The translations under genes were made by a program, and so were the position numbers. From Notamacropus eugenii (lineage: Eukaryota > Chordata > Mammalia > Diprotodontia > Macropodidae), in assembly GCF_028372415.1 (NCBI RefSeq), contig NW_027325120.1, positions 811,501-875,500 on the forward strand: DNA of 64,000 nucleotides, read 5' to 3'. This document shows positions 13,001 to 64,000 of the stretch, piece after piece; within the stretch, counting starts at the first letter, position 1, and every line of letters begins with the position of its first letter. Below the pieces are notes generated by a model, which was not told the origin of the DNA, searched no databases, and saw only the letters and a list, made by a program, of their open reading frames with translations.

Positions 13001-16000
13001 TCAAATTCTAATTTCAAATTTTGATCCTAAAACTGTATCCCAAATTCTAATGTCAGATTCCTAGTCTAAATTCATGGCGCAAATTCCAGTTCCATGCTCA
13101 AATATCAATACCATATTAAATTTGAAATTAATAATCCATATTCCTCTTCCATAGTATAATTCAAAATTCCAATTGTTAATTCCAATCCTAAATTCCACGT
13201 CCAAATTCCAGTTCCAAATTCTTCTTACACATTCCCATTCCAAATTCCCATTCTTAATTCGGTTTCCAAATCCTGGTTCTAAATCTCAGTTCCATATCCG
13301 AATTCTAAACTCCACTTCCAAATTCAAGTTCCAAATTCCTATTCTGATTACTTATCCCAAATTCCAATTTAAAATTCCTTGTCAAAACTCATGTTGCCAA
13401 TTCCAATTCCGTTCTCAAATTTCAATGCCATATTGAAATTTAAATTCCAATTCCAAATTCCTCTTCTATAGTGTAATTCAAAATTGCAATTCTGAGTTCC
13501 AACTCCAATTACAGCTTCCAAATTCCAGTTCCAAATTCCGATTCTACATTTCAGTTTTAAATTGCGATTCCAAATTGCAATCCTAAATGCTTATTCCAAA
13601 TTCTAATTATAAATTCCTATTTCAATTTTCACATTGCAATTTGATATTAAAGATTCGATTCCAAATTCCAATTATATATTATTAATCTAAATTCTACTTT
13701 CACACTCCAATTGTAAATTCATGTTTCAAATTCCAATTCTATACTCAAATTTCATTACCAAATCAAAACTGAAATTCCACTTCCAAATTCCCTTCTACTA
13801 GTCTCATTCCAAATTCCAATTTAAAACGCCTATTTCAAAGTGTAATTCCAAAATCTAGTTTCTAAATCCAAATTTCACATTAAAATTAAATACTCACATG
13901 TTAATTCCAAGTTTTAATCCTAAAACTTTCATCCTAATTCGAATTTCCAATTACTAGTCTTAATTCATGTTGCAAATTCCAATTCCATGCTGAAACTTCA
14001 ATACCAAATTAAAATTGAAATTACACTTCCAAAGTGCTCTTCCGTAATCTAATTCAAAATTCCAATTCTTAATTCAAATTCCCAATTCCAGGTCCACATT
14101 CCAATTCCAAATTCCAATGCTAAATTTCCACTTCCAAAATCCAGTTTCACATTTCTGATCCAAATTCCCATTCTTCGTTCAAATTCCAAGTTCCTGTTCC
14201 AAATTCCAGTTGCATATCAGAATTCTAAATTCCACTTCCAAATTCAAGTTTGAAGTTCCAATTCAGATTTCTTATTCCAAATTCTAATTCCAAAATCCTA
14301 TTTCATATTTCACATTTCAGTTCCAAACTAAAATTCCGATTGCAACTTCCAATTATATCTCAGTAACCCACAGTCTACTTTCAAATTCCAATTGAAAATC
14401 CACGTTTCATATTCCATTTCCATACTCAGACGTCAATGCTAAATTATAACTGAAATTCAGCTTCCAAGTTCCTTTTCCATAGTCTAATTCCAACTTTAAA
14501 ATCCTATTTCAAACTGTATTTCCAAAATCTAAGTTCCCATTCCCTATTTCACATTAAAATTAAATGCTGACAAACAAATTTCAAATTTTAATCCTAAAGC
14601 TTTTTCTCAAATTTTAATTTCTAATTTCTAGTCCAAATTCATGCTGCAAATTCCAATTCCATGTTCAAATTTCAATGCCAAATTAAAATGTATATTTCAC
14701 TTCCACATTCCTCTTCCATAGTTTAATTTGAAATTGCAATTCCAAATTCCAGTTCTTAATTCCAATTCCAAATTGCAGGTCCACATTCCAATTCCAAATT
14801 ATAATTCTAAATTACGCTTCCATATTCCTGTTCCAAGTTCCAATTCTTCATTCCAATTGCAAATTCCAGTTCCATATTCCAATTCTATATTCCACTTCCA
14901 AATTGCACTTCCAAATTCCAATTCCACATTCCAATTCTATATAGCACTTCCAAATTCCAGTTCCAAATTCAAATTCTGATTTCTTACCACAAATTCTAAT
15001 TTCAAATTTCTAGTCCAAATTCATCTTACCAATTTTAATTCCATGCTCAAATTTCAATATCCAATTAAAACTGGCATTCTACTTCCAAATTCCACTTCCA
15101 TAATCTAATCCCAAATTCCACTTTCAACTTCCAGTTCCATATTCCAATTCTGAATTCTTATTCCAAATTCTAATTCCAAATTCCGATTTCAAGTTTCACA
15201 TTACAATTTGATATAAAAATTTGGAATCCAAATTTCAATTATATCTTATTTATCCAAATTCTACTTTGAAATCCCAATTTTAAATTCATGTTTAAAATTC
15301 CATTTTTATACTCAAATTTCATTACCAAATGAAAACTGAAATTCCACTTCCAAATTCCTTTCCACAAGTCTCATTCCAGATTCCAATTTTAAATCCCCTT
15401 TTCAATCTATTATTCCAAACTCTAGGTTCCAAATCGAAATTTCACATTAAAATTACATACTCAGTTTCTAAATCCAAATTTTTATATTAAAACTTTATCC
15501 CAAATTCTAATTTCATATTCCTAATCTAAATTCATGGTGCAAGTTCCAATTCTATAATCAAATTTCAATACCAAATTAAATTTGGAATTCCACTTCCAAA
15601 TTCCTCTTCCATAGGCTAATTCAAAATTCCACTTGTTAATTCCACTTGCAAATTCCATTCCAAACTCCAATTCCAAATTCCACTTCAAACTTCCAGTTCC
15701 ATATTCCAATTCTGAATTCTTATTCCACATTCTAATTCTAAATTCTTATTTCAATTTTCATATTGCAATTCGACACTAAAATTTCAATTCCAAATTCCAA
15801 TTATATCTTTTTTAATCGAAATTCTACTTTCAAATCCCAACTGTAAATTCATGTTTCAAATTCCAAGTACATGCTCAAATATCATTACCAAATCAAAACT
15901 GAAATTCCACTTCCAAATTTCAGTTCCATATTCCAAATCGAAATTCCACTTCCAAATTGCAGTGCCAAATGCCAATTCTACATTCCAATTCTAAATTCCA

Positions 16001-19000
16001 CTTCAAACTTCCAGTTCCAATTTCCAATTCTGACTTCTTATGACAAATTGTAATTTTAAACCATATTCCACATTTCAAATTTCAATTCCGTTCTAAAATT
16101 CCGTTTCCACCTTCCAATTCTATCTTATTAATCCAAATTCTACTTTCAAATTAGAACTCTAAATTCATGTTTCCAATTTCAGTTCTACACTCATATTTCA
16201 ATCACAAATGAAAACTGAAATTCCACTTCCCAGTTCCTCTTCTATAGTCTAGTTCCAAATTCCCATTTGAAACTCCTATTTGATACTGTAATTGCAAAAT
16301 CTAGGTTCCTATTCCAAATGTCACATTAAAATTAAATACTCAAATTCTAATTCCAAATTTTAATCCTAAAACCTTAATCCAAATTCTAATTTCCAATTCC
16401 TAGTCTAAATACATGTTGCACATTCCAATTCCATGCTGAAATACCAATACCAAATTAAAATTGAAATTCCACTTCCAAAATGCTCTTAATTAGTCTAATT
16501 CGAAATTACAATTCTTAATTCAAACCCGAATTCCAGGTCTATAATTCAATTCAAAATTCCAATTCTAAATTCCATGTCAAAATTCCATTTCTGTATTCCC
16601 GTTTCACATTCCTGATCCAAATTCCAATTCTTAATTCAAATTCCGAATTCTGGTTCCAAATTCTAGTTCCATATCCCAACGCTAAATTCTATTTCCAACT
16701 TCAAGTTACACATTCCAATTCTTATTTCAATTCCAAAATCCTATTGCACATTTCATATTTCAATTCCAAACTAAAATTTCGATTGCAGCTTCCAATTATA
16801 TCTAACTAACCCAAAGTCTACTTTCAAATTCCCATCGTAAATTCATGTTTTATATTCCAATTCCATACTCAAATTTCAATACCAATTGAAAATTGAAATT
16901 CAACTTCCAAATTCCTTTTCCATAGTGTAATTCCAAATTACGAGTTCAAAATCCTATTTCAAACTCTATTTCCAAATCTAGGTTCCCATTTCATATTTCA
17001 CATTAAAATTAAATGCTAACATTCCAATTTCAAATTTTAACCCTAAATCTTTATCCCAAATCCTAATATCAAATTTCTAGTCCAAATTCATGTTGCAATT
17101 TCCAAGTCCAAACTCTAAATTCAATGCCAAATTAAAATTGAAATTCCACTTCTACATTCCTTTTCTATAGTCTAGTACGCAATTCCGATTCCTAATTCCA
17201 ACTTCTAAATCCAGTTCCAACTTCCAATTTTAAATTCAGCTTTCAAAGTGCTCTTCCAACTTCTAATTCCATATTCCAATTCCAATGTATATTTCCAGTT
17301 TCCAATTCTTATTTCTTATTCCAAAATCCTATACCACATTTCACCTCATTTCCATATTAAAATTCTGATTACAAATTCCAATTGTATTATTAATCCAAAT
17401 TCTACTTTCAAATTCCAACTGTAAATTCATGTTTCAAACTAAAATTCTATACTCAAATTTCAATAACAAATTAAAACTGAAATTCCACCTTGAAATTCCT
17501 TTTCCATAATCTAATTCCAAATTCCAATTTCAAGTCCCTATTTCGAACTGTAATTCCAAATTAAAGTTCCTATTCCCAATTTCTCCTTAACGTCAAATGC
17601 AAAAAGTCTAATTCCAAATTTTAATCCTAAGCTTTGCTCCAAATTTTTATTTCAAATTCGTATTCTAAATTAAGGTTGCAAATTCCAATTCAATGCTTAA
17701 ATTTCAACACCAAATTAAATCGAAATTCCACTTCCAAAATCCTCTTCCATAGTCTAATTAAAAATTCCAATTCTTAATTCCAATACCAAATTCCTGTTCC
17801 AAATTCCAATACCAAATTCCAATTCTGAATTTCATTTCCAAAATCTTGTTCGATATTCCAATTCTGAATTCTTATTCCAAATGCTTATCCCAAATCCGTA
17901 TTCCACATTTCACATTTCAATTTCATACTAAAATTCTGATTTCAAATTCCAATTATATCTTATTAATCCAAATTCTACTTTTAAATTCCAATTATAAAGT
18001 CTTATGTCAAATTCCAATTCTATACCTGTATTTCAACACCAAATGAAAACTGAAGTTCCACTTCTCAATTTCTTGTCATAGTCTAATTCCAAATTCCACT
18101 TTCAAACTCCTATTTCAAACTGTAATTCCAAAATCTAGGTTCTTATTTCGAGTTTCACATCAAAATTAAATACTCAAATTCTAATTCCAAATTTTAATTC
18201 TAAAATTTTATCCCAAATTCTAATTTCAGATTCTTAGTCTAAATTGATGGTGCAAATTTCAATTCCATGCTCAAATTTCATTGCCAAATTAAATTTGGAA
18301 TTACACTGCCAAATTGCTCTTCCCTTGTCTAATTCAAAATTCTAATTGTTAATTCCAATTGCAAATTATAATTCTAAATTCCAATTCCAAATTCCACTTC
18401 TAAATTACAATTCCATATTTCAATTCTGAATTCTTATTCCAAATTCCTATTTCAATTTTCACATTGTAATTTGATAGTAAAATTTCGATTCCAAATTTCA
18501 GTTATACCTTGTCAATCCAAATTCTGCTTTGAAATACCAATTGTATATTCATGTTTCAAATTCCAATTCAATACTCAAATTTCATTAACAAATCAAAACT
18601 GATTTCCTCTTCCAAATTCATTTCTATTAGTCTCATTCTAAATTCCAATTTCAAACTCCTCTTTTAAACTGTTATTCCAAAATGTAGGTTCTAAATCCAA
18701 ATCTCACTTTAAAATTACGTACTCAAATTCTAAATCCAAATGCTAACAGTAAAATTTTACCCCAAATTCTAATTTAAAATTCTTAGTCTGAATTCATGGG
18801 GCAAATTCCAATTCCATGCTCAAATTTCAATATCAAATTAAAATTGAAATTCCACTTCCGAATTCCCCTTCCATAGTCTAATTCAAAATTCCCATTATTG
18901 ATTCCAATTCCATATTCCAATTCAAAATTCCACGTCCAAGTTCAAGTTCCATGTTCTAATTCTGAATACTTATTCCAAATTCTTTTTCCAAATTCCTATT

Positions 19001-22000
19001 CTAATTTTCACATTGCAATTTGATACTAAAACTTATATTCCAAATTTCGGTTATATCTTACTAACCCTAATTCTACTTTGAAATCCCAATTGTAAATTCA
19101 TGTTTCAAATTCCAATTCTATACTCACATTTCATTACCAAATGAAAACTAAAATTGCACTTCCAAATTCCTTTCCACTAATCTCCTTCCAAATTCCAACT
19201 TCAAACTCCTCTTTCAAACTGTTATTCCAAAATCTAGTTTGCAAATTCAAATTTCACATTGAAATTATATACTCAAATTCTTCTTACAAATTTTAATCCT
19301 AAAACTTTATCCCAAATTCAAACTTCGGATTCCTAGTCTAAAATCCTGGTGCAAATTCCAATTCAACGCTCAAATTTAAAGACCAGACTAAATTTCACAT
19401 TACACTTCTGAATTCCTCTTTCATAGCCTAATTCAAAATTCCAATTGTTAGTTCCAATTCCAAATTCGAGTTCCAAATTTCAATTCCAAATTCCAATTCT
19501 AAATTCCACTTGCACATTCCAATTCCAAAATCCAGTTTCATATTCCCATTCCATCTTAATTCCAGTTCCAAATTCCATTTCCAAATTCCCATTCTTAATT
19601 CAAATTTCAAATTCCAGTTCCATATCCCAATTCTAAATTCCACTTCCAAATGCCAATTTCAAACTCCTACTTTAAACTATAATTTCAAATCTAGGATGCT
19701 ATCCCAAATTTTACATTAAAATTGAATACTAATATTCTAATTTCAAATTTTATTCCTAAAACTTTATCCCAAACTCTAATTTGAAATTCCTAATCTAAAT
19801 TCATATTGCATATTCCTCTTCCATACTCTAATTCAAAATTCCAATTCTTAATTCCAGTTCCAAATTCCAGTACCGAATTCCAATTCTAAATCCCAATTGT
19901 ATATTCCATTTCCCAATTCGAGTCCCAAATTCCAATTCCACATTCCAATTCTGAATTCCAGTTCTAAATTCCAGTTGCAAATTCTAATTCTGAATTCTTA
20001 TTTCAAATGCTAATTCCAAATTCCTATGCCACATTTCACATTTAAATTCTATCCTAAAATTCCGATTTCAAATTCCATAATATCTTATTAATCTTAATTC
20101 TACTTTCAAATTCCAATTGTAAATTCATGTTTCATATTCCAGTACTATACTCAAATTTCAATACCAAATTAAAAATGAAATTCCAATTCTAAATTTTTCT
20201 TCCATAGTCTAATTCGAAATTCCAATTCTTAATTCCAATTCCAAATTCCACTTCCAAATTTTAATTCTTCATTCCAATTCTAAATTCCTCTTCCAAATTC
20301 CACTTGTTTACTTCTTCGAAATTCTAATTCTAAATTCCTCTTCCACATTTCACATTTCAATTCCGTACTTAAATTCTGATTCCAATTTCCAATTATGTCT
20401 TATTCATCCAAATTCCACTTTGAAATTCCAATGGTAAATTCATGTTTGAAATTAAAATTCTGTTCTCAAATTTCAATAACAAATTAAAACTCAAATTCCA
20501 CTTCCAAATTCCTCTTCCATAGTCTAATTCCAAATTCCAATTCCAAAGTCTTATTTCAAACTCTAAGTCTAAAATCCATGTTCTTATTACTAATTTCACA
20601 TTCCAATTAAATATTAGTTTTCTAATTCCACATTTTAAATCTGAAATCTCCGAAATTCTTATGGAAAATTCCTAGTCAAAGTTGATGTTGCAAGTTCCAA
20701 TTACATACTCAAATTTCAATTCTAAATTCGAATTTTAACTTATTATTGCAAATTATACCCTCAAATTCCAAATATAAGTTAAACTTCCAAATTCCCAATC
20801 CATACTGAAATTGTAATTCCAAATTCAAATTTTAAGTTATTAATCCAAATTCTACTTTTTACTTTCAATTGTAAATTCTTGCTTCATGTTGCAATTCTAC
20901 AATCAAATTTCAAGACCAAATTAACACTGAAATTCCACTTCCAAATTTCTTTTCCATTCTCTAATCCCAAATTCTAACTTCAAACTCCTATTTCAAATGG
21001 CAATTCCAAAATCTAGATTCCTATTCAAAATTTCACATTCAATTTACATGCTAAAATTCTAATTCCAAATTTTAGTCCTAATACTTTATCCGAAATTCTA
21101 ATTTCAGGTATTTAGTCTAAATTCACGTTGCAAATTCCGGTTCCATGCTCAAATTTCAATACCAAAATAAAATTGAAATTCCAATTATAAATTCTTCTTC
21201 CATAGTCCAATTCAAAGGTCCAATTTTTAATTTCACTACCAAATTTCAGTTTCAAGTTCCAATTCTAAATTCCACTTCCAAATTCCAGTTTCAAATTTCA
21301 ATTCCACGTTCCAATTCTAAATTCCCCTTCCATATTCTAGTTCCAAATTCCAATTTTGGTTTATTATTCCAAATTATAATTCCAAATTAACATTCCAAAT
21401 TTCACATTTTAATTCCATAGTAAAATTCCAATTCGACATTCCAATTACATCTTATTAATTTGAATTCTACTTTCAAATTCTGATTATAAATTCAAGTTTC
21501 AAATTTAATTCTGTATTCAAATCTCAATACCAAATGAAAACTGAAATTCTTCTTCCAAATTTCTTTTCCATACTCTAATTCCAAATTCCAATTTCAAACT
21601 CCTATTTCAAAGTGTAATTCCAAAATCTAGGTTCTTTTCAAAATTTCACAATAAAATTATATACTAAAATTTTAATTCCAAATTTTAGTCCCAAAACGTT
21701 ATCCTAAATTCTAATTTCAACTTCCTAGTCTCATGATAGAAACTCATGTTACAAATTCCAATTCCATACTCAAATTTCAATACCAAATTAAAACTGAAAT
21801 TCCACTTCCAAATTCATCCTCCATAGTCTAATTCAAAATTCCATTTCTTAATTCCAATTCCAAATTCCAGTTCCAAATTCCAATTCTAAATTCCATTCCC
21901 TATTTCCAGTTCCAAATTCGTATTCCATATTCCAATTCTGACTTCCTCCTCCAAATTCTAGTTCCAAATTTCCATTCGAAATTTTACATTCTAATCTCAT

Positions 22001-22098
22001 ACTAAAATTCTAATTCAAAATTTCAGTTCTAAATCACAATTCCAAATTCTAGGTCCAAATTCAAATTCCAGTTGTAAATTCCTCTTCCAAATTCTAGT
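10018..22098. repeat. Large 13-bp-monomer satellite array with higher-order structure
   Basis: About 12 kb of diverged 13-bp monomers (aaattccaNttcN), all in the same orientation. Landmark phrases return in the same order. Variants of cctagtctaaattcatg occur near 10470, 11124, 11690, 12408, 13060, 13955, 14626, 15010, 15520, 16398, 17077, 17655, 18232, 18780, 19330, 19790, 20665, 21110 and 21720. They are each followed by a ccatgctcaaatttcaa phrase and a cttccatagtctaatt phrase. Spacing is mostly 450-720 bp, with some of about 880 and 384, so the higher-order unit is irregular. The plus strand has very little G and almost no CpG. Reading frames inside it are by-products of the repeat. The segment 15340-22098 is also present inverted at 57229-64000. 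Confidence 0.95.
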
Positions 22099-23042
22099 TC
22101 TAATTTCCAAAAAAGATAAAGGGAGTATGTATAAATTAAATGCTGTGATGATAACAAATGTGATTTAAGGGTGGGAAGGGATCGTACTGGGAGATGTGAA
22201 AAGGAGGAAGCAGAAAAATTAATAAATTCTGTCACAATGAGAGGCACAAAAACATATTGCATTGGTACGAAACAGGGGAGGGAGATGAATATTCTTTGAG
22301 AGGTACTCTCATCTGATTCGATTCAAGAAGGGTACAGCAACATTAATTAAGGACAGAAATACAACTAGCCTTATAGGTAATAGGAGTGGAAGTGAGGAAA
22401 GAAAGGGAGAGGAGGCCAATTGGGAGGGCAGAAGTAGTAAGGGAAAGGGGGATTAAAAGGGCAGGGGCTGAGAGAAGAAAGGGGACCCTGAGGGAGTCGG
22501 TGATGAAAAATTAAACTAATTTGGGGAAGGGAAGGAAGAAGGGAGAACTCAAAGCAGGAACAACAGGAAAAGGGATGAAGGGAAAGACACAAATAGTAAT
22601 CATAACTGTGAATATGAATGGGATGAACTCTCCCATAAGACGGAGACTTATAGCAGAATGGTTTAAAAACCATAATCCAACAATATGCTATTTACAGGAA
22701 ATATATTTGAAAATGGGAGATACACTTAGGGGAAAGGTAAAAACTTGGAGCAGAATTTATTTTGCTTCAGCTGATGTAAGAAGAAAGCAGGGGTAGCAAT
22801 CCTAATATCAGACAAAGCTAAAGCAGAAATAAATCTAATCAAAAGTTGTAAGGTAGTCTACAAAATAATAAGCAGTATCTACCTAAACCTTCAGCAAACA
22901 TTATATGCAATGGGGATAAGCTAGATGCATTTCCAATGAGATCAGGGTTGAAACAAGGATATCCATTATCACCACTATTATTCCATATGGTACTAGAAAT
23001 GTGAACTGTAGCAATTAGACAAGATAAAGAAATTGAAGGAAT
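15340..23042 (+). repeat. Left arm of large inverted duplication
   Basis: Base p on the left pairs with 79327-p on the right for p above about 17320, and with 79340-p below that, out to the window end. The match covers satellite (15340-22098) and the L1 segment 22099-23042. Stretches I compared by eye (around 16500, 19500, 20400, 22140 and 22800-23030) are identical except for single substitutions, for example at 22035, 22942 and 22961. The inner edge is near 23042, where matching collapses within a few bases. The L1 continues beyond this edge on the left, so this arm appears to be the donor copy. The outer edge is unknown because the right arm leaves the window. Confidence 0.93.
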
Positions 23043-25195
23043 AAGAATAGGCAAAGAAGAAACTAAGCTTTCACTCTTTTCAGATGATATGATGATATCC
23101 TCAGAGAAACACAGAGACTCAAGTAAAAAGCTACTGGAAATAACAGACAACTTTCGCAGAGTTTCAGGTTATAAAATAAACCCGCAGAAATCTGCATTCC
23201 TATACATTAGCAACGAAGTTCAACAGCAAGAGATAGAAAGAGAAATCCCATTTAAACCTAGGGTAGACATTATAATATACTTGTGAGTTTACCTGCCAAA
23301 ACAAACCCAAGGACTATATGAACTCAATTACAATACACTTTTTGCACAAATAAAGTCAGATTTAAGTAACTGGAAAAACATCAGTTGCTCATGGATAGGC
23401 CAAGCTAATGTAATAAAAATGACAATTCTACCTAAATTTATTTACTTATTTAGTGTCATACCAATTAAACTATCAGATAATTATTTTCTAGAGCAGCATA
23501 AAATAATATCAAAATTCATGTGGAAGAACAAATTGTCCAGAATATCAAAGGGACTGATGAAAAGAAATGCTAGGGAAGGTGGCCTAGCGCTACCAGATTT
23601 CAAATTGTACTGTAAAGCAGCAATTATCAAAACCGCTTCATACTGGCTTAGAAACAGATGAGTAGACAAGTGGAATAGACTTGGCACTCAAGACCCAGTA
23701 GGCAAGGAATATAGCAAACTCCTGTCTGATAAATCGAAGGCCTCCAGTGTCTGGGATAAGAACTCACTGTTCGGTTCGACAGAAATTGCTGGGAAAACTG
23801 GATAACAGAGTGACGGAAACTAGACATAGACCCATGCCTGACACTGTACACAAGAGTAAAGTCCAGATGGGTGCACGATCTCGGTGTAAAGATTGAAACC
23901 ACGGACAAACTTGAGGCGGAAGGAATAGTGAATTTATCAGACTTATGGAGAAGGGAAGAATTTTTGACTAAAGAAGAAATAGAAAGCATTATGAAATGCA
24001 AGATGGATAACTTTGATTACATTAAACTGAAAAGTATTTGCACAACCAAACCCAATGCAACCAAAATTCGGAGGGATGTAGTAAAGTGGGAAAGAATTTT
24101 TATAGCTAGTCTCTGGGATAAAAGCCTCATTTCTAGAATATATAGAGAAGTGACTCAAATGTACAACTATACAAGTCATTCCCCAATTGATAAATGGTCA
24201 AAGGATACAAACAGGCAGTTTTCAGAGGAAGAAATTAAAGATAATCTAAAATCATATGAAAAAATGTTCTAAATCACTTTTGATTAGAGAGATGCATATC
24301 ACAACAACTCTGAAGTACCACATCACACCTGTAAGATTGGCAAACATGACAGAACAGGAAAATGATAAATATCGGAGAGGATGTGGGAGAGTTGGAACAC
24401 TAATTCACTGTTGATGGAGCTGTGAGTTCATCCAACCATTCTGGAAAGTGATTTGGAACTATGCTCTAAAGGCCACAAAAATATGCATACCCTTTGATCC
24501 AGCAATATCTCTTCCAGGACTATATCCCCAAGAGATCATAAAAATAGAAAAGGGTCCCAGATGTACAAAACTAGTTGTAGGAGCGCTCTCTGTGGTTGCC
24601 AAAAGCTGGAAATTATGTGGATGTCCATAAATTGATGAATGACGGAATAAATTATGGCATATGAATGTAATGGAATGCTATTGTGCTATAAGAAATGATG
24701 AACAGGAAGTCCTCAGAGAGGCCTGGAAAGACTTATATGATCTCATGCTGAGGGAAAGGAGCAGAACCAGGAGAATTTTGTGCACAGCAGCAAGCAGTGT
24801 GGGACAGTTTGTTTGTTTGTTTGTTTTTCTAGTTGACTTGGAACTTCATTGCAATGCAAGGACTTAAAAAATTCCCAATGGTCTTTTAAGGCAAAATGCC
24901 TTCCACATCCAGAGAAAGAAATATGGAATTCAATCATAGATTGTAGCAGATCCTTTATTATGTATGTGTGTGTATTACGTTTTCGTTTCTTACATGATTT
25001 CTTCTATTCATTTTAAATCTTCTACATAGCTTGACTGTAGTGAAAATTTATTTATTAGGAATGTATGCGTAGAACCTGTATAAAACTGTATACCATTTCG
25101 GTGAGGGAGGAGGGAAGTAAGAAGAGGGAGGGGGAAATCTAAGTAATATGGTAGTGATTGTAGAACACTGAAAATAAATAAAATTAATTAAAATA
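22099..25195 (+). mobile_element. 5'-truncated L1 copy with internal ORF2 deletion
   Basis: It starts at the satellite junction in sequence matching the ORF1-ORF2 intergenic region of the older L1 at 31380-31840. ORF2 opens with ATG at 22575; the endonuclease part reads ITVNMNGMNSP with RRRLIAEWF. Near 22800-22865 the endonuclease joins reverse transcriptase directly, so an internal piece is missing. RT motifs follow: [13 protein letters not shown] at about 22945-22985 and the catalytic LFSDDM at 23075-23092. The C-terminal ORF2 region continues in broken frames (23419-23661, 23871-24272, to about 24850). The element ends with a 3' UTR and an A-rich tail at about 25165-25195. It is heavily mutated and inactive. 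Confidence 0.85.
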
Positions 25196-27540: not shown

Positions 27541-27830
27541 AACTCCTTAAAGGGAGCAATTTGGACACATGGAAAATGAGGTACAAAATGTAACTAAAGA
27601 AAACTGTTTTTAAAACAATTAGAATTGGTCAAGTAGATTCTAATGACTCTAAGAGACATCAAGATTTAGTCAAACAGGAGGGGCGGAGCCAAGATGGCGG
27701 AGTAGAAAGACGCACATACACATAGCTCCTAACCCACAACCCACAGAACGGCTAGAGGGGCCAACTCACGGTGAATTCTGCACCCAGAGGCCACGGAATA
27801 TTGGAGCGAGGGAGATTTCTGTTCCGGAGA

Positions 27831-47418: not shown

Positions 47419-47425
47419 CATAAAA

Positions 47426-49960: not shown

Positions 49961-50041
49961 GAAGTAAACATTCAGAATATTAATAAAAAATGCTTTCTTA
50001 TTAAATTATTACTATTGAGATAGCTTTCATCATCATCATTG

Positions 50042-50089
<48 letters not shown>

Positions 50090-51563: not shown

Positions 51564-54173
51564 TGTAATGATAATTTAAATGGGGACATCTTTCTCATTC
51601 ATTAGCAGGTCCATATGACCTGAATGGGTTACAAGGAAGCCTGAATTACAGGAAGCCTGTTATGGGAGGAAGTTGCTGAATGGGTGGAACAGGAAGAGTG
51701 GAACAGGAAGAGGTAGACCTAGAGCAGAGCGAAGGGGAAATTAGTGAGAGAGAAGTAAGAACTAAAGAATACAGGTGAGTCCACAGCTGGCTGTGAGTGT
51801 GAGAAGGGCATTTTGTGTAAGGGCAGTCTGTTTGTGATTAGTTTTAAGGAGACCTGCTTGAGATTTGTTTAAGGGACCTTGTTTGTGTGAAGCTTAGCAG
51901 GCAGAAGTCTTGGCGATGGGGTTGTTCTCTGCATTGTTATTGGACATAGATTTTTGTTACTATGATGGATTTGGATTACTGGTGTCTGAATAAATATTTT
52001 AGTTTTGTCTTCCATGTGAAGAGTCTGTGGTATTTCGCATTTCAGAATTGCACTGGGATATTCATGGTCACCTTACGTGCTATGAATATTGCATTGGCCT
52101 TATAAATGGTGAAGAGGACGGGATCGTGAAATAGAAGACATCAATTTGGAGGTAGAAAGGCAGAGGAGACAAAGGAAGAAACGGATACTCGGGGGCGGAA
52201 GGATTTACTTTAATCCTCCCTAGCTAGAGAATGAACTAAAGACACATGGCTTTGTGAAAACTGGGAACCAAGGCTATAGAAGGGAGAACCCAGAGAATGA
52301 GAAAGATGTTTGCAGGGAATACCAACAGAACCAGGGAAAAAATTGCAGGAGTGTATAGCAGAAGCTGGGTCTTGTTTACAATATATCGAACTATATGTAG
52401 AAGCAGAGACAAGCTGCTGGAGGAGAAGGCTCAAGGATGAAAAGGGAATTGGCTAGTTTGCATAAGAGTCACTTTATGCTGTAGCATTCAAGATCTCTTT
52501 CAGAAGAGCAAGTTGGAGTTCTCAGGTGGTAGGAAAAGCCGTTGGTAGTTTAGCTCATAAAAAGCAGCAAAAAGGTTGCAAAAGAGGGTATGTGTGGGTG
52601 ACTTCTCAGAGAGACACAAAACAGGAGAATCAGGGTGCCACACAGGGGTTAGGGAGGTATTTGAAGATTACTCAGTAGGAACTCACAAATATTTAGAGTT
52701 AGTTTACTAAAAGGATGGGAGAATCATTGCTCTCTTGAATGGTGAGAATCAGTGAAAAAGATAAATTTCCTCGAGGAAGAAGGGAAAATAGCCAGGGGAT
52801 TCAAAGTCAGAATAGATCGACAAGAAAAGAATTGTTTTTTTCTCTATTAAGAGTGGGAGTAGATTTTAGAAGAATAGAAGGAATTCCAAGTAATGAACTA
52901 TATTAGATTTATCAAAGAGAGACGGTTGATTTTAGACTGAGCAGGGAGATGAGAACTGCCTATGCAGAACCTCCTGAAATATTGTATCCTAGTTTATCAC
53001 ACCTGCAGGGAGAATAGGAGATTTCCAGGCCCCAGTTCAGACTAAGGAAAGTACATCTCTAGCCAGAATGATGACGCCAAAACTGCAAATTAGAAAACGG
53101 TAAACAACAGTGTTTGAGGCTATGATAGTGAGTTCATGAACTCCAGAGGAATTGCTGACCTTTTATCTACCAAGATTCTGGTTATTGTCTCCTTGTTTCT
53201 TTGTGGATTTTGTCTGTTCACCTTGCTAATCAGATTTGTTTTCTGTAGGATTAGTACCCTCCACCTGCAGATGCCTGATAACTTAAGCCAGATGTCACAC
53301 CCTGTCTACGACTGTGATGTGTTATCCCTGGACTTGGTGTTGATCAAGTTCTGGATGCCAGCTAAAGAACTGACTCCTCAAATGGAATCTCTTTGTAAGT
53401 CCAATCTCACAGGAAATAGCTATGGAAAAATAGTCCTTCTCTCCTTACCCCAAGATTTTGGGCCCCATATTCAAGGAGGGAATTGTGGGCCCTTGTGCTC
53501 AAGTTCCACCCTAAGATATTGCTTTATGTCCTCCTTTTGTGTGATTCCTGTCATAAGGTAAAATTCTCTTGACCCTAATTGCCTAAGATATGATTTTCCT
53601 TCTTAAAGTTCTGTTCACGCTAGTTGCCCCACTGACCTATGTAATGAATACAAATGATCTTGGGGACCCATGAAATGGTAATTTAAAAGAGGAGATCTTT
53701 ATCATTCATTAAAAGGTCCATGTGACCTACCTGGATCACATGGAAGTCTGAGTCATATGGAGCCTATAGTGAAAGGGAGTTTGCTAAATGGGTAGAACAG
53801 GAAGGGTGGAACAGGAAGAGGCTGAGCTAGAGCAGAGCTGAGAGGAAATTAGTGAGAAAGTAGTCAGAACTGAATGATGCAGGCTCTGAGTGTGAAAATG
53901 ACATTTTTTAAGGGAATCTTGTTTGTGCTTTGTTTAAGGGAAACCTGCTGGTGATTTGCTTAAGGGACCTTGTTTGTGGGAAGCTTAGCAGGGAGAAGGC
54001 TTGGGGAAGATGTTATTTGCATTGCTGTCATGTATAGATTTTTGTTACTATGATGGATTTGGTTTACAGGTGTCTGTTTTGGTTCTGTTTTTCATGTGGA
54101 GAGTATTTTGCATTTCTCAATTCAAAATTGTACCCAGATATTCATGGTTCCAGTAAGTTCTGTGGGTTCCACA
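51564..54173 (+). mobile_element. ERV with two LTRs and a short interior
   Basis: Two direct copies of one LTR flank 1.58 kb. LTR1 is about 51564-52093 and LTR2 about 53671-54173. They share the start (tgtaatgataattt / tgaaatggtaattt), gtagaacaggaa-type repeats, gcttaagggaccttgtttgt-type blocks, ttttgttactatgatggatt, and the 3' segment with gatattcatggt. LTR1 carries AATAAA near 51991. They differ clearly, so the insertion is old. Just after LTR1, aatggtgaagaggacggg may be the primer-binding area. No gag or pol sequence was recognised, so the provirus is internally deleted or was a non-autonomous form. Confidence 0.82.
53136..53561 (+). pseudogene. Uncharacterised frame in ERV interior with hydrophobic segment
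   Basis: A 141-codon open frame just 5' of LTR2. Residues about 13-35 are strongly hydrophobic and followed by arginines, like a membrane anchor. Its position is where the end of env would lie. No disulphide or fusion motif typical of an envelope transmembrane subunit is seen, and the rest is not recognisable. It could equally be a chance frame. Confidence 0.25.
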
Positions 54174-54339
54174 TTGACTGTACAGATTATCTGCATTTTT
54201 AGAGTGTTTCAGATCTTGAAGGAGAGGCTAATACTTCATGTCTGAAAAAGGAACTTGGTGCAATTTGTAATCTGTCCTTCAAGATTAAACAACTTTTAGT
54301 GTTTTCAATTGTATTTCCTTTTTTTGTGGCCCCATTTGA
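54174..54339. other. Short spacer after the ERV
   Basis: Nothing recognised. Confidence 0.4.
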
Positions 54340-54515
54340 AGTTTTCTTAGAAGATCCTGGAGTGATTTTCCATTTCCTTCCTCATTTTATGGTTTAGGGA
54401 AACTGAGTAAAATGACTTATCCAGGTCGTAGAGTTAGGGAGTATCTGGGGCCAGATTTGAACTCAAGCCTTCCTGACTCCACATCTCACCTATATCCACT
54501 GAGATACCTGAGTAA
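54340..54515 (-). mobile_element. tRNA/MIR-type SINE, minus strand
   Basis: The plus strand reads gagtgattttccatttcctt, aaactgagtaaaatgac, gggccagatttgaactcaag, ccttcctgactcca and atccactgagatacctgag, the reversed order of the SINE at 47426-47678. Confidence 0.82.
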
Positions 54516-55015
54516 TAATTCTGGTCATACATTTTTTCTCCAGACAATGAGAGAATAGGGAAGAAGGATAAAAGAGGGCGACGCAGTTTAATTAAGAAAG
54601 TGCATATTAACTATCGCAAGGAAGATCAAGGTTTTTTCTTAGGCAATCAATGATGTAAAAGGAAAATAATAATAATGAGATTAGAAGAAAATTATGGAAA
54701 CACACACACATACAATTGAATAAATTAAGGTGATCTTTACTTTTCATTCCCTTTCAGAGTCAAAAGTATATGGATTTTTAGTCATTTTTGTAAGATTTGT
54801 AGAGTTTGCTCTTGTTTTCACATTGCGACTTCAATTTAGTTCTTTTGGTATTTGACGTATGACATATATATGAATGGAATGATCACACAGACTCTTCGAA
54901 GTGAACAGATCTGTTTAGACAGGACTTTGAAAAGACATTTGCCAGGGTGTCATCTGCTAACTTCAACTTGAAGAGTGGCTAGGTTGATCACTGGGCAAAG
55001 AAAAACACCATGTTT
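54516..55015. other. Unassigned sequence
   Basis: No gene; a short (CA) patch near 54700. Confidence 0.4.
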
Positions 55016-55110
55016 TTCAGTCTGGTACAGTGGAAAGATCACAAACTGGAGGTGGTGGATGTTGGGTTCAAAACCCACATCTTAAACTTACTGCCTGGGT
55101 GACTGGATTA
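55016..55110 (+). mobile_element. MIR-like SINE fragment
   Basis: The blocks tctggtacagtggaaagatc, ggttcaaaacccacatctta, aacttactgcctgggtgact follow MIR 5' order. Confidence 0.65.
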
Positions 55111-56215
55111 CGTTATCGAAATAAATTAACACTAAACTTCTAATACAAATGGTATTTATTTGAATATTTGTAGAAAAAAATGAAGTGTACCGTGGTATTG
55201 CTTCCTCATCATGAAGACAGAGTAAGCCTGATTTGACTCTAATCTACAAAGACAAAGTCTCCTGGCAATTTGTCTATTTTTGATTGCGGAGGCAGTGTAG
55301 TTCATCAACGATTAGCAACAAAGGCACTCTTCCCCCAGGATAATTCGAGCTGAGTGGTTACCTTCCTCAGGTGAAAGTGCAACAACCTTCCCACAGCTAA
55401 GGAGTAGACTGAGACTGGAAACAGCATATTAGAAAAGGAATCGTCTCCATTCCTTCTTCTCAAAGAAAAAGAAAATGTTGTTTGTGGTCCTCCTCATCAA
55501 CTGCTCCTGTTTCTTCTTGCCCTCCATCTCCAACCCAAGTCCAAATTAGAACCTGGAATGTTAAGGAATGGAGCCGAGGTGGAAGAATTGGCCTGGCCTG
55601 GAGGGAGAGGATTAGGTTTGAGGGCTGTTCTGATTGGGCTTGTTCAACTGGGCAAAGGACTTAACTTTCCAGGACCTCAGCTGCTCATTTGAAAAATCGA
55701 TTGTAGGAGAGGAAGAGGTAAACTACATGTACTCAGAGTTCCCCTACAGTTCTTAATCTATAGTCCAGTGGGAGTGTCTGCTAGGTCTTCCTTATGTCAG
55801 GTCCAGTGCCACATACATCCTCTTCAGACACGTAAAGGGCTGCAAAAAATCCAAGATCACATTTACCTAAGGTCGGGAGGGTGAGCGTCTCAGAAACTTG
55901 GAGTTTTGTCTTTGGCCACTCATCCCAGTCACCTTTTTAGTTCCTGTTGACCAGATGCAAGTCGAATCCCTAACTAGAGGAACCTAGAAAATGGGGCTAG
56001 AGAACATCATAAAGCCTTCATCTCCTTAGGAGGTGAGCACCTGAGAAATATAAAATCAGCTTCACAAAAATAGCCCTCAGGAGGATGTCACAAAGATCCT
56101 GATTACTTTCCTATCTCCAACTTCATCACCAGGTAGCTATTCCCAGATAGGTAAAAGTTTCATATTGCCTGGAAGCTTGAAGAAGTTCAGAATTCCCGGA
56201 GGCAGGGGAATGGAT
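55111..56215. other. Unassigned sequence before the right arm
   Basis: A MIR 3'-like piece lies near 55640-55740 (tgggcaaaggacttaacttt, ctcagctgctcatttg). A 60-codon frame at 55482-55664 has no support. Nothing else is recognised. Confidence 0.4.
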
Positions 56216-56281
56216 AGAGAAGAGGAAAGAGGAGAGGGAAAGAAGAGAGGGAAAGAAGAGAAAGAAGGGAAAAAAAGGAGA
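56216..56281 (+). repeat. 66-bp uninterrupted purine (GA) tract at duplication edge
   Basis: Every base from 56216 to 56281 is A or G, with gaaagaaga- and gggaaagaaga-type repeats. It ends three bases before the inner edge of the right arm. Such tracts can form triplex structures; relevance to the breakpoint is inference. Confidence 0.9.
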
Positions 56282-56284
56282 CAC

Positions 56285-57228
56285 ATTCTTTCAATTTCTT
56301 TATCTTGTCTAATTGCTACAGTTCACATTTCTAGTACCATATGGAATAATAGTGGTGATAATGGACATCCTTGTTTCAACCCTGGTCTCATTGGAAATGC
56401 ATCTAGCTTATCCCCATTGCATATAATGTTTGCTGAAGGTTTAGGTAGATACTGCTTATTATTTTGTAGACTACCTTACAACTTTTGATTAGATTTATTT
56501 CTGCTTTAGCTTTGTCTGATATTAGGATTGCTACCCCTGCTTTCTTCTTACATCAGCTGAAGCAAAATAAATTCTGCTCCAAGTTTTTACCTTTCCCCTA
56601 AGTGTATCTCCCATTTTCAAATATATTTCCTGTAAATAGCATATTGTTGGATTATGGTTTTTAAACCATTCTGCTATAAGTCTCCGTCTTATGGGAGAGT
56701 TCATCCCATTCATATTCACAGTTATGATTACTATTTGTGTCTTTCCCTTCATCCCTTTTCCTGTTGTTCCTGCTTTGAGTTCTCCCTTCTTCCTTCCCTT
56801 CCCCAAATTAGTTTAATTTTTCATCACCGACTCCCTCAGGGTCCCCTTTCTTCTCTCAGCCCCTGCCCTTTTAATCCCCCTTTCCCTTACTACTTCTGCC
56901 CTCCCAATTGGCCTCCTCTCCCTTTCTTTCCTCACTTCCACTCCTATTACCTATAAGGCTAGTTGTATTTCTGTCCTTAATTAATGTTGCTGTACCCTTC
57001 TTGAATCGAATCAGATGAGAGTACCTCTCAAAGAATATTCATCTCCCTCCCCTGTTTCGTACCAATGCAATATGTTTTTGTGCCTCTCATTGTGACAGAA
57101 TTTATTAATTTTTCTGCTTCCTCCTTTTCACATCTCCCAGTACGATCCCTTCCCACCCTTAAATCACATTTGTTATCATCACAGCATTTAATTTATACAT
57201 ACTCCCTTTATCTTTTTTGGAAATTAGA
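56285..57228 (-). mobile_element. L1 fragment within right arm
   Basis: Minus-strand copy of the L1 part 22099-23042: intergenic region, ORF2 ATG (mirror of 22575, near 56752), endonuclease start, the internal deletion, and the first part of RT including the QGxPLSPLLF block. It stops before the catalytic FSDDM motif, which is kept only on the left. The internal deletion is shared with the left copy, so it predates the duplication. Confidence 0.9.
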
Positions 57229-60200
57229 ACTAGAATTTGGAAGAGGAATTTACAACTGGAATTTGAATTTGGACCTAGAATTTGGAATTGTAATTTAGAA
57301 CTGAAATTTTGAATTAGAATTTTAGTATGAGATTAGAATGTAAAATTTCGAATGGAAATTTGGAACTAGAATTTGGAGGAGGAAGTCAGAATTGGAATAT
57401 GGAATACGAATTTGGAACTGGAAATAGGGAATGGAATTTAGAATTGGAATTTGGAACTGGAATTTGGAATTGGAATTAAGAAATGGAATTTTGAATTAGA
57501 CTATGGAAGATGAATTTGGAAGTGGAATTTCAGTTTTAATTTGGTATTGAAATTTGAGTATGGAATTGGAATTTGTAACATGAGTTTCTATCATGAGACT
57601 AGGAAGTTGAAATTAGAATTTAGGATAACGTTTTGGGACCAAAATTTGGAATTAAAATTTTAGTATATAATTTTATTGTGAAATTTTGAAAAGAACCTAG
57701 ATTTTGGAATTACACTTTGAAATAGGAGTTTGAAATTGGAATTTGGAATTAGAGTATGGAAAAGAAATTTGGAAGAAGAATTTCAGTTTTCATTTGGTAT
57801 TGAGATTTGAATACAGAATTAAATTTGAAACTTGAATTTATAATCAGAATTTGAAAGTAGAATTCAAATTAATAAGATGTAATTGGAATGTCGAATTGGA
57901 ATTTTACTATGGAATTAAAATGTGAAATTTGGAATGTTAATTTGGAATTATAATTTGGAATAATAAACCAAAATTGGAATTTGGAACTAGAATATGGAAG
58001 GGGAATTTAGAATTGGAACGTGGAATTGAAATTTGAAACTGGAATTTGGAAGTGGAATTTAGAATTGGAACTTGAAACTGAAATTTGGTAGTGAAATTAA
58101 AAATTGGACCTTTGAATTGGACTATGGAAGAAGAATTTATAATTGGAATTTCAATTTTATTTTGGTATTGAAATTTGAGCATGGAACCGGAATTTGCAAC
58201 GTGAATTTAGACTAAATACCTGAAATTAGAATTTCGGATAAAGTATTAGGACTAAAATTTGGAATTAGAATTTTAGCATGTAAATTGAATGTGAAATTTT
58301 GAATAGGAATCTAGATTTTGGAATTGCCATTTGAAATAGGAGTTTGAAGTTAGAATTTGGGATTAGAGAATGGAAAAGAAATTTGGAAGTGGAATTTCAG
58401 TGTTAATTTGGTCTTGAAATTTGATTGTAGAATTGCAACATGAAGCAAGAATTTACAATTGAAAGTAAAAAGTAGAATTTGGATTAATAACTTAAAATTT
58501 GAATTTGGAATTACAATTTCAGTATGGATTGGGAATTTGGAAGTTTAACTTATATTTGGAATTTGAGGGTATAATTTGCAATAATAAGTTAAAATTCGAA
58601 TTTAGAATTGAAATTTGAGTATGTAATTGGAACTTGCAACATCAACTTTGACTAGGAATTTTCCATAAGAATTTCGGAGATTTCAGATTTAAAATGTGGA
58701 ATTAGAAAACTAATATTTAATTGGAATGTGAAATTAGTAATAAGAACATGGATTTTAGACTTAGAGTTTGAAATAAGACTTTGGAATTGGAATTTGGAAT
58801 TAGACTATGGAAGAGGAATTTGGAAGTGGAATTTGAGTTTTAATTTGTTATTGAAATTTGAGAACAGAATTTTAATTTCAAACATGAATTTACCATTGGA
58901 ATTTCAAAGTGGAATTTGGATGAATAAGACATAATTGGAAATTGGAATCAGAATTTAAGTACGGAATTGAAATGTGAAATGTGGAAGAGGAATTTAGAAT
59001 TAGAATTTCGAAGAAGTAAACAAGTGGAATTTGGAAGAGGAATTTAGAATTGGAATGAAGAATTAAAATTTGGAAGTGGAATTTGGAATTGGAATTAAGA
59101 ATTGGAATTTCGAATTAGACTATGGAAGAAAAATTTAGAATTGGAATTTCATTTTTAATTTGGTATTGAAATTTGAGTATAGTACTGGAATATGAAACAT
59201 GAATTTACAATTGGAATTTGAAAGTAGAATTAAGATTAATAAGATATTATGGAATTTGAAATCGGAATTTTAGGATAGAATTTAAATGTGAAATGTGGCA
59301 TAGGAATTTGGAATTAGCATTTGAAATAAGAATTCAGAATTAGAATTTGCAACTGGAATTTAGAACTGGAATTCAGAATTGGAATGTGGAATTGGAATTT
59401 GGGACTCGAATTGGGAAATGGAATATACAATTGGGATTTAGAATTGGAATTCGGTACTGGAATTTGGAACTGGAATTAAGAATTGGAATTTTGAATTAGA
59501 GTATGGAAGAGGAATATGCAATATGAATTTAGATTAGGAATTTCAAATTAGAGTTTGGGATAAAGTTTTAGGAATAAAATTTGAAATTAGAATATTAGTA
59601 TTCAATTTTAATGTAAAATTTGGGATAGCATCCTAGATTTGAAATTATAGTTTAAAGTAGGAGTTTGAAATTGGCATTTGGAAGTGGAATTTAGAATTGG
59701 GATATGGAACTGGAATTTGAAATTTGAATTAAGAATGGGAATTTGGAAATGGAATTTGGAACTGGAATTAAGATGGAATGGGAATATGAAACTGGATTTT
59801 GGAATTGGAATGTGCAAGTGGAATTTAGAATTGGAATTTGGAATTGAAATTTGGAACTCGAATTTGGAATTGGAACTAACAATTGGAATTTTGAATTAGG
59901 CTATGAAAGAGGAATTCAGAAGTGTAATGTGAAATTTAGTCTGGTCTTTAAATTTGAGCGTTGAATTGGAATTTGCACCAGGATTTTAGACTAGGAATCC
60001 GAAGTTTGAATTTGGGATAAAGTTTTAGGATTAAAATTTGTAAGAAGAATTTGAGTATATAATTTCAATGTGAAATTTGAATTTGCAAACTAGATTTTGG
60101 AATAACAGTTTGAAAGAGGAGTTTGAAGTTGGAATTTGGAAGGAGATTAGTGGAAAGGAATTTGGAAGTGCAATTTTAGTTTTCATTTGGTAATGAAATG

Positions 60201-63200
60201 TGAGTATAGAATTGGAATTTGAAACATGAATTTACAATTGGGATTTCAAAGTAGAATTAGGGTTAGTAAGATATAACCGAAATTTGGAATATAAGTTTTA
60301 GTATCAAATTGCAATGTGAAAATTAGAATAGGAATTTGGAAAAAGAATTTGGAATAAGTATTCAGAATTAGAACATGGAACTTGAACTTGGACGTGGAAT
60401 TTTGAATTGGAATATGGAATTGGAATCAATAATGGGAATTTTGAATTAGACTATGGAAGGGGAATTCGGAAGTGGAATTTCAATTTTAATTTGATATTGA
60501 AATTTGAGCATGGAATTGGAATTTGCCCCATGAATTCAGACTAAGAATTTTAAATTAGAATTTGGGGTAAAATTTTACTGTTAGCATTTGGATTTAGAAT
60601 TTGAGTACGTAATTTTAAAGTGAGATTTGGATTTAGAACCTACATTTTGGAATAACAGTTTAAAAGAGGAGTTTGAAATTGGAATTTAGAATGAGACTAA
60701 TAGAAATGAATTTGGAAGAGGAAATCAGTTTTGATTTGTTAATGAAATTTGAGTATTGAATTGGAGTTTGAAACATGAATATACAATTGGTATTTCAAAG
60801 CAGAATTTGGATTGACAAGGTATAACTGAAATTTGGAATCGAAATTTTACTATCAAATTACAATGTGAAAATTGAAATAGGAATTTGGAATAAGAATTCA
60901 GAATTGAAATATGGAATTGTAATTTAGAAGTGGAATTTGGAATTGGAATTTAGAATTATAATTTGCAATTGGAATTAACAATTAGAATTTTGAATTAGAC
61001 AAGGGAAGAGCAATTTGGCAGTGTAATTCCAAATTTAATTTGGCAATGAAATTTGAGCATGGAATTGAAATTTGCACCATCAATTTAGACTAAGAATCTG
61101 AAATTAGAATTTGGGATAAAATTTTAGAATTAAAATTTGGAATTAGAATTTGAGTATTTAATTTTGATGTGAAACTCGAAATAAGAACCTAGATTTTGGA
61201 ATTACAGTTTGAAATAGGAGTTTGAAAGTGGAATTTGGAATTAGACTATGACAAGAAATTGAGAAGTGGAACTTCAGTTTTCATTTGGTGTTGAAATACA
61301 GGTATAGAATTGGAATTTGACATAAGACTTTATAATTGGAATTTAAAAGTAGAATTTGGATTAATAAGATATAATTGGAATTTGAAATCAGAATTTTAGT
61401 ATGAAATTGAAATGTGAAATGTGGAATACGGATTTGGGATAAGCATTTGGAATAAGAATTCAGAATTGGAATATCGAACAAGATTTTGGAAATGAAATTC
61501 AGAATTGGAATTTGGTATTGGAATTTGGAACAGGAATTTGGTATTGGAATTAAGAATTGGAATTTTTAATTAGACTATGGAAGAGGATTTTGGAAGTGGA
61601 ATTTCGATTTAATTTGGTGTTGAAATTTAAGCATTGAATTGGAATTTGCAACCTTAATTTAGAATACGAATTTGAAATAAAAATTTGGAGCAAAGCTTAG
61701 GATTAAAATTTGGAATTAGACTTTTTGCATTTGACGTTAAGGAGAAATTGGGAATAGGAACTTTAATTTGGAATTACAGTTCGAAATAGGGACTTGAAAT
61801 TGGAATTTGGAATTAGATTATGGAAAAGGAATTTCAAGGTGGAATTTCAGTTTTAATTTGTTATTGAAATTTGAGTATAGAATTTTAGTTTGAAACATGA
61901 ATTTACAGTTGGAATTTGAAAGTAGAATTTGGATTAATAATACAATTGGAATTTGTAATCAGAATTTTAATATGGAAATGAGGTGAAATGTGGTATAGGA
62001 TTTTGGAATTATATTTTGGAATAAGAAATAAGAATTGGAAACTGGAAATATACATTGGAATTGGAATATGGAATTAGAAGTTGGAAGAGCACTTTGAAAG
62101 CTGAATTTAAAATTGGAAGTTGGAACTGGATTTAGAAGTTGGAATTAGGAATCGGAATTGCGTACTAGACTATAGAAAAGGAATGTAGAAGTGGAATTTC
62201 AATTTTAATTTGGCATTGAATTTAGAGTTTGGACTTGGAAATTGCAACATGAATTTGGACTAGAAATTTGATATTAGGATTTGGGATAAAGATTTAGGGT
62301 TAAAATTTGAAATTGGAATGTTAGCATTTAATTTTAATGTGAAATATGAAATGGGAACCTAGATTTGGAAATAGAGTTTGAAATAGGATTTTGAACTCGT
62401 AATTTGGAATTACACTATGGAAAAGGAATTTGGAAGTTGAATTTCAATTTTCAATTGGTATTGAAATTTGAGTATGGAATTGGAATATAAAACATGAATT
62501 TACGATGGGAATTTGAAAGTAGACTTTGGGTTAGTTAGATATAATTGGAAGCTGCAATCGAAATTTTAGTTTGGAATTGAAATATGAAATGTGCAATAGG
62601 ATTTTGGAATTGAAATAAGAATTGGAATGTGTAACTTGAAGTTGGAAATAGAATTTAGCGTTGGGATATGGAACTAGAATTTGGAACCAGAATTCGGAAT
62701 TTGAATTAAGAATTGGAATTTGGATCAGGAATGTGAAACGGGAATACAGAAATGGAATTTTGACATGGAATTTAGAATTGGAATTTTGAATTGAATTATA
62801 GACCTGGAATTCGGGTTTGAATTAAGAATTGTAATTTCGAATTAGACTAATTAAGAGCATTTTGGAAGTGGAATTTCAATTTTAATTTGGTATTGGTATT
62901 TCAGCATGGAATTGGAATGTGCAACATGTATTTAGACTAGGAATTGGAAATTAGAATTTGGATTAAGGTTTTAGGATTAAAATTTGGAATTAGAATTTGA
63001 GTATTTAATTTTAATGTGACATTTGGAATAGGAACCTAGATTTTGCAATTACAGTATCAAATAGGAGTTTCAAATGGGAATTTGGAACTAGACTATAGAA
63101 GAGGAACTGGGAAGTGGAATTTCAGTTTTCATTTGTGATTGAAATATGAGTGTAGAACTGAAATTGGAAACATGAATTTAGAGTTCTAATTTGAAAGTAG

Positions 63201-64000
63201 AATTTGGATTAATAAGATAGAATTGGAAGGTGGAAACGGAATTTTAGAACGGAATTGAAATTTGAAATGTGGAATATGGTTTAAAATTACAATTTGTCAT
63301 AAGAAGTCAGAATTGGAAATTGGAACTGGAAGTTTGAAGTGGAATTTAGAATTGGAATGTAGAATTGGCATTTGGCACTGCAATTTGGAAGTGGAATTTC
63401 GATTTGGAATATGGAACTGAAATTTGGAAGTGGAATTTCAGTTTTGATTTGGTAATGATATTTGAGCATGTACTTGGAATTTGAAACATGAATTTACAGT
63501 TGGGATTTGAAAGTAGAATTTCGATTAAAAAAGGTATAATTGGAATTTGGAATTGAAATTTTAGTGTCGAATTGCAATATGAAAATTGAAATAAGAATTT
63601 AGAATTAGAATGTGGAATAAGAATTCAGAATTGGAATATGGAACTGGAAGTTTGAAGTGGAATTTGGAATTGGAGTTTGGAATGGAATTTGCAAGTGGAA
63701 TTAACAAGTGGAATTTTGAATTAGCCTATGGAAGAGGAATTTGGAAGTGGAATTCCAAATTTAATTTGGTATTGAAATTTGATTATAGAATTGGAACTTG
63801 CACCATGAATTTAGATTAGGAATATGAAATTAGAATTTGGGATAAAGTTTTAATATAAAAATTTGGATTTAGAAACTGAGTATGTAATTTTAATGTGAAA
63901 TTTCGATTTGGAACCTAGAGTTTGGAATAATAGATTGAAAAGGGGATTTAAAATTGGAATCTGGAATGAGACTTGTGGAAAGGAATTTGGAAGTGGAATT
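57229..64000. repeat. 13-bp-monomer satellite, inverted array
   Basis: Same satellite as 10018-22098 in reverse orientation (ggaattNggaattt-type units). The plus strand is now G-rich relative to C. It continues to the window end. Confidence 0.95.

What the first reader, a model, noticed from the sequence alone, without database searches (positions are those of the whole stretch)
15340..64000. Inverted duplication: arms of at least 7.7 kb, near-identical, around a 33-kb spacer with the OR cluster
The two arms pair at a constant coordinate sum (79327, or 79340 outside one 13-bp indel) across satellite and L1. Only isolated substitutions were seen in the stretches compared (for example 22035, 22942, 22961). 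A fast-evolving satellite this similar implies a recent event, ongoing gene conversion, or an assembly artefact. Large near-identical palindromes are unusual around OR genes. The outer end is not in the window, so the palindrome may be far larger.
Basis: seen in the sequence. Interest (0 to 1): 0.75.

Follow-up and report, generated by a model that had tools for sequence, protein, structure and literature searches.

The report
Recent inverted duplication flanking olfactory-receptor genes
A marsupial chromosome stretch of satellite DNA and a dead L1 element occurs twice in opposite orientations around a 33-kb segment with one intact and two broken smell-receptor genes; it looks like a recent, ordinary segmental duplication that could let the segment flip.

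Summary
15340-23042 and 56285-64000 are an inverted repeat with 8 substitutions and one 13-bp indel over 7,703 aligned bases. The longest exact inverted run is 3,125 bp, against 16-22 bp in ten Markov-random windows. The arm still runs at 64000, so its full size is unknown. The 33,242-bp spacer holds one intact OR5D13-like gene and, by my reading, two insert-split OR pseudogenes. Relatives suggest a diprotodont marsupial.

The left arm is the original at the inner end: an L1 reverse-transcriptase frame crosses 23042 (RVT_1 8.7e-13). The right copy stops there and abuts unrelated polypurine sequence without visible microhomology. Best reading: a recent dispersed inverted segmental duplication, probably made by replication or end joining, now a possible substrate for gene conversion and inversion. 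Differences cluster near the spacer (P about 0.003-0.025, partly post hoc), which fits partial homogenisation, breakpoint mutagenesis or polishing bias. Assembly error is disfavoured, not excluded. Rearrangements with inverted DNA at OR clusters are known in humans, so this is a known kind of structure.

The parts
15340..23042 (+). Left arm of the inverted repeat (at least 7,703 bp): satellite to about 22109, then L1 fragment to 23042; original copy at its inner end
   Evidence: L1 reverse-transcriptase frame continues past 23042
56285..64000 (-). Right arm (at least 7,716 bp), inverted copy, L1 truncated at 56285; still continuing at the window end
   Evidence: RVT_1 match shrinks to residues 6-32 (E 0.042) and the frame runs into polypyrimidine-coded sequence
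23043..56284 (.). Spacer of 33,242 bp
10026..22109 (+). Degenerate satellite built on about 13-bp AATTCCAAATTCC-like units (58-63% match in the four longest 13-bp TRF rows), GC skew about -0.6
   Evidence: same-strand matches of 500 bp or more reach at most 83.5%. Start and end are taken from TRF rows.
22110..24276 (+). Broken L1 fragment (stops, internal loss by eye) that carries the inner breakpoint
42076..43020 (+). Intact olfactory receptor, 314 aa, OR5D13-like
   Evidence: 7tm_4 1.4e-37
45153..47081 (+). OR pseudogene with stops, apparently split by an insert (fragments 45153-45242 and 46296-47081)
   Evidence: that the two fragments are one gene is inferred
48331..49997 (+). OR pseudogene with frame changes and stops, in two parts (48331-48928 and 49524-49997)
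   Evidence: that the two parts are one gene is inferred

Best explanation
A real, recent, dispersed inverted segmental duplication. A block of at least 7.7 kb (satellite plus part of an L1) was copied from the left site and joined in reverse orientation about 33 kb away, at a breakpoint inside the L1 on the donor side. Shown: structure, identity, donor side at the inner end, no visible microhomology at the inner joint. Inferred: a replicative template switch or end joining made it; the arms are young (about 75 thousand to 1 million years under assumed rates of 1-3e-9 per site per year); the pair can act as a substrate for gene conversion and for inversion of the OR-bearing spacer. I assign it no selected function.
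For: Arms differ at 8 of 7,703 sites plus one 13-bp indel. Same-strand satellite matches of 500 bp or more are at most 83.5% alike, so monomer-level homogenisation does not explain the match. The left L1 reads through the breakpoint (RVT_1, residues 4-98, E 8.7e-13, breakpoint at residue 38), while the right copy loses the domain there (residues 6-32, E 0.042). The sequence next to the right joint (55001-56284) has no other match in the window at E 0.01, low-complexity filter on. Of the three L1 differences the likely derived residue is in the left arm once and in the right arm twice (judged against a recalled L1 motif), as expected if both arms mutate independently.
Against: No reads, depth or second assembly could be examined. 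The outer boundary is off the window, so neither the full block nor the second joint is known. Both visible ends of the arm lie in repeats, where assemblies err. All 8 substitutions are transitions (P 0.039 if two thirds are expected), and they cluster near the spacer, which a uniform clock does not predict.
Confidence: 0.72

Rival explanations
1. Older inverted duplication whose arms are kept alike by gene conversion, as in sex-chromosome palindromes, with conversion fading near the spacer.
For: Six of 8 substitutions lie within 1,355 bp of the spacer. Without 23038: 5 of 7 (P 0.0025), and 2 of 7 within 100 bp (P 0.0028). Mean-distance test: P 0.006 with all 8, 0.025 without 23038. Human Y palindrome arms exceed 99.9% identity through conversion (PMC3723533, passages).
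Against: Only 8 substitutions, and the distance thresholds were chosen after seeing them. Youth alone explains the identity. Breakpoint mutagenesis or polishing bias would give the same gradient.
Confidence: 0.13
2. Assembly artefact: a chimeric read or a mis-walk through satellite/L1 duplicated one locus, or joined two haplotypes in inverse orientation.
For: Visible ends are in repeats; 0.10% divergence is in the range of allelic differences (recalled); the record listed for the window's OR is 971,659 bases, not a chromosome.
Against: Nine separate differences between the arms. The inner joint is not in sequence shared by both flanks, so a repeat-driven mis-join does not readily produce it; a chimeric molecule would be needed. 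A missed-adapter fold-back read would give no 33-kb spacer (reasoning).
Confidence: 0.15

Closest known systems
Inverted repeats that mediate recurrent human inversions (PMC3961182, abstract and passages)
   Same: Size class: 22 predicted inversions of 5.1-226 kb with inverted repeats of 1.6-24 kb; here 33 kb between arms of at least 7.7 kb.
   Different: No second orientation has been seen here; the species is a marsupial; the arms are satellite plus L1.
Human 8p23 low-copy repeats and OR-gene-cluster rearrangements (PMC10766186 and PMC544879, passages; Giglio et al. 2001 seen only as a reference entry)
   Same: 8p inverted duplications are tabulated with 'Olfactory receptor gene cluster' where other rows give the joint's homology; a 4.7-Mb inversion polymorphism with low-copy repeats proposed as its breakpoints.
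   Different: Those repeats (paralogs of 25-133 kb) lie 3.9-5.7 Mb apart. There the OR genes are part of the repeats (recalled); here they lie in the spacer.
Human Y palindrome P6 (PMC3723533, passages)
   Same: Near-identical inverted arms around a spacer of tens of kb (about 46 kb of human P6 spacer in its Table 1).
   Different: P6 arms exceed 100 kb and diverge by about 0.02%; conversion there is demonstrated, here it is not; an OR5D cluster is not expected on a sex chromosome (recalled).

Membership tests
Segmental duplication (inverted, intrachromosomal) | Block of at least 1 kb with at least 90% identity (definition recalled) | tested here: met
   7.7 kb, 99.73-99.90%
Segmental duplication (inverted, intrachromosomal) | Copy boundaries that are not one mobile element's ends | tested here: inconclusive
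   Met at the inner joint, which lies inside an L1 coding region; the arm spans satellite and L1. Outer joint not seen.
Segmental duplication (inverted, intrachromosomal) | Both copies present in the genome at normal depth | not testable with these tools
   no reads; own-genome search did not complete
Gene-converting palindrome | Arms more alike than their age allows, shown by outgroup or population data | not testable with these tools
   no second genome of the locus
Gene-converting palindrome | Divergence lower inside the arms than at the edge | tested here: inconclusive
   P 0.003-0.025 on 7-8 differences, thresholds post hoc, only the inner edge visible
Inversion-mediating inverted repeat | Both orientations of the spacer found | not testable with these tools
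   one sequence only
ODIRA-type inverted amplification | Joints at short (5-6 bp) inverted repeats 40-80 bp apart, and an inverted triplication | tested here: inconclusive
   At the donor a 7-nt inverted repeat, 22978-22984 with 23038-23044, 53 nt apart, spans the breakpoint. But 3 of the 11 pairs in that 301-bp stretch are separated by 40-80 nt and their arms cover 38 of 301 bases, so about one point in eight would fall in one by chance; no control was run. The inner joint has no microhomology; outer joint and copy number unseen.

The most novel reading that the evidence does not exclude
The arms recombine often in this species: gene conversion keeps them identical away from the spacer and the OR-bearing 33-kb segment flips in the population, moving an intact OR gene to new regulatory neighbours.
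Probability: 0.07. Interest if true: 0.5.

Novelty: new member of a known kind. Interest (0 to 1): 0.2.

Why it matters
Near-identical inverted pairs are recurrent-inversion substrates and weak points of assemblies. A marsupial OR locus with such a pair is a testable place to ask whether OR neighbourhoods flip within a species, but the structure itself belongs to a well-known kind.

Tried and rejected
Independent growth of satellite arrays: rejected, because same-strand array matches of 500 bp or more reach at most 83.5% while the arms match at 99.9% and share the L1 part.

A transposed mobile element with inverted ends: rejected as the main idea, because the arm mixes satellite with the internal part of a broken L1 and the inner joint lies inside the reverse-transcriptase frame.

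PacBio missed-adapter fold-back: rejected, because it would put the arms back to back, without a 33-kb spacer (reasoning, not a test; the sequencing method is unknown to me).

ODIRA: a 7-nt inverted repeat spans the donor breakpoint, but such pairs are dense there and no control was run; left open.

Dating: 0.10% (0.045-0.205%) gives 75-1,023 thousand years for assumed rates of 1-3e-9 per site per year. The rates are assumptions and the figure assumes no gene conversion.

Species: diprotodont relatives by the OR (best 82% Notamacropus, 81% Trichosurus, 80-81% Petaurus). No exact species was found. 7,961 proteins matched among 7,987 scored candidates; 120 were listed, and those 120 were the queries. 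The entry for the window's own OR counts 2 member sequences, which I could not resolve.

Literature: six searches in PMC open-licence papers only, 47 listed rows in all. None of the listed titles or abstract starts described this locus. Four papers were opened: passages of PMC10766186, PMC544879 and PMC3723533, abstract and passages of PMC3961182.

Full report
Observation. The window carries one large inverted repeat, 15340-23042 against 56285-64000, with 8 substitutions and a single 13-bp indel over 7,703 aligned bases. The longest exact inverted match is 3,125 bp; ten first-order Markov windows gave 16-22 bp. The right arm reaches the last base of the window, so 7.7 kb is a lower bound.

What the arms are. 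15340-22109 is part of a satellite that starts at about 10026, built on AATTCCAAATTCC-like units of about 13 bp, very degenerate (58-63% match in the four longest 13-bp TRF rows of 10026-22109, up to 80% in short rows), with a GC skew of about -0.6 that changes sign in the right arm. Same-strand matches of at least 500 bp from the array reach at most 83.5% (234 rows, most pairs counted in both directions); a 282-bp match reaches 86.5%. The two arms at 99.9% are therefore one block copied once, not two arrays that grew alike. The inner 933 bp are an L1 fragment.

Which copy is original. In the left arm the L1 reverse-transcriptase frame runs through the boundary: 22930-23289, read with its two stops as X, matches RVT_1 from residue 4 to 98 at 8.7e-13, and the boundary lies at residue 38. 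In the right arm the same frame loses the domain at the boundary (RVT_1 residues 6-32, E 0.042) and runs into a polypurine/polypyrimidine stretch. 55001-56284 has no other match in the window at E 0.01, with the low-complexity filter on. So, at the inner end, the left arm is the donor and the right arm the copy. No microhomology is seen at the joint. This favours end joining or a template switch over homologous recombination, but the other joint is unseen. A 7-nt inverted repeat with 53 nt between its arms spans the donor breakpoint (22978-22984 with 23038-23044), as template-switch models such as ODIRA would like; such pairs are dense in that stretch and I ran no control, so it is only a hint. 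If the mismatch at 23038 marks the true end, the arm is 5 bp shorter.

Differences. All 8 substitutions are transitions (P 0.039 if two thirds are expected) and none creates or removes a CpG in the printed contexts. Six of 8 lie within 1,355 bp of the spacer. Leaving out 23038 as possible joint noise, 5 of 7 do (P 0.0025), and the mean distance is short (P 0.025; 0.006 with all 8). The distance thresholds were set after looking. Three causes fit: conversion that fades towards the spacer, error-prone synthesis near a breakpoint, and short-read polishing that blends the arms except where unique flank anchors the reads. I cannot separate them. In the L1 part, by the recalled L1 motif, the derived residue seems to be in the left arm at 22961 (Cys to Tyr) and in the right arm at 22942 and 23038, so both arms seem to have changed.

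Age. Divergence is 0.104% (0.045-0.205%), about 75 thousand to 1 million years for assumed neutral rates of 1-3e-9 per site per year. Conversion would make the event older.

The spacer. It holds one intact OR (42076-43020, 314 aa, 7tm_4 1.4e-37). Its best named relatives are OR5D13-like and OR5D18-like proteins of Notamacropus eugenii, Trichosurus vulpecula and Petaurus breviceps papuanus at 80-82%, which suggests a diprotodont marsupial. Two more OR copies are broken: 45153-45242 plus 46296-47081, and 48331-48928 plus 49524-49997. That each pair is one gene split by an insert is my inference from the receptor residues matched. 'OR cluster' thus means one intact gene and two pseudogenes here, as far as tblastn with 120 relatives shows.

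Artefact or real. For an artefact: repeats at the visible ends, a sub-megabase record (971,659 bases), and a divergence compatible with alleles. Against: nine differences between the arms, a 33-kb spacer, and a joint that is not in sequence shared by both flanks. Mis-joins by repeat collapse need shared sequence at the joint; this one would need a chimeric molecule (reasoning). I put the artefact at 0.15.

How it works. I claim no selected function. The predicted consequence is that the arms can pair, exchange sequence and, on crossover, invert the 33-kb segment. In humans, inverted repeats of 1.6-24 kb mediate predicted inversions of 5.1-226 kb; 17 of 22 were validated and many seem recurrent (PMC3961182, abstract). 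This pair lies within that size range.

Comparison. Rearrangements with inverted DNA at OR clusters are not new: PMC10766186 tabulates two 8p inverted duplications with 'Olfactory receptor gene cluster' where other rows give the joint's homology (passages), and PMC544879 describes a 4.7-Mb inversion polymorphism at 8p23.1, proposes low-copy repeats as its breakpoints, and cites the OR-cluster paper of Giglio et al. (passages and reference entry). The Y palindrome P6 shows how conversion can hold arms at more than 99.9% (passages), but it was studied with outgroups and many chromosomes, which I lack. Verdict: a new member of a known kind, low interest unless the segment is shown to flip.

Noticed in passing
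3748-9309 and 27989-31196: Several partial L1 5' regions with ORF1 coding sequence lie head to tail on the same strand (3748-4981, 4991-6225, 6214-7729, 7771-9309; about 70-89% alike in the matches listed, including those to 27989-31196), which looks like nested or tandemly repeated L1 5' ends.
   Followed up: partly
1-1064 and 10026-22109: The same degenerate satellite occurs at the left window edge (1-1064 matches 14283-15352 at 75%) and from 10026 on, so about 9 kb of L1 and other sequence seems to interrupt the array.
   Followed up: no
45858-46198, 51564-52068, 53671-54148: A dispersed repeat in three copies (68-77% alike, the first inverted relative to the others) lies in the spacer; the first copy lies between the two parts of an OR pseudogene.
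   Followed up: no
42076-43020: The intact OR is at most 82% identical to any named relative among the 120 listed, although several diprotodont genomes are in the database; the source species seems not to be annotated there.
   Followed up: no
22978-23044: A 7-nt inverted repeat with 53 nt between its arms spans the donor-side breakpoint at 23042; it may be chance.
   Followed up: partly
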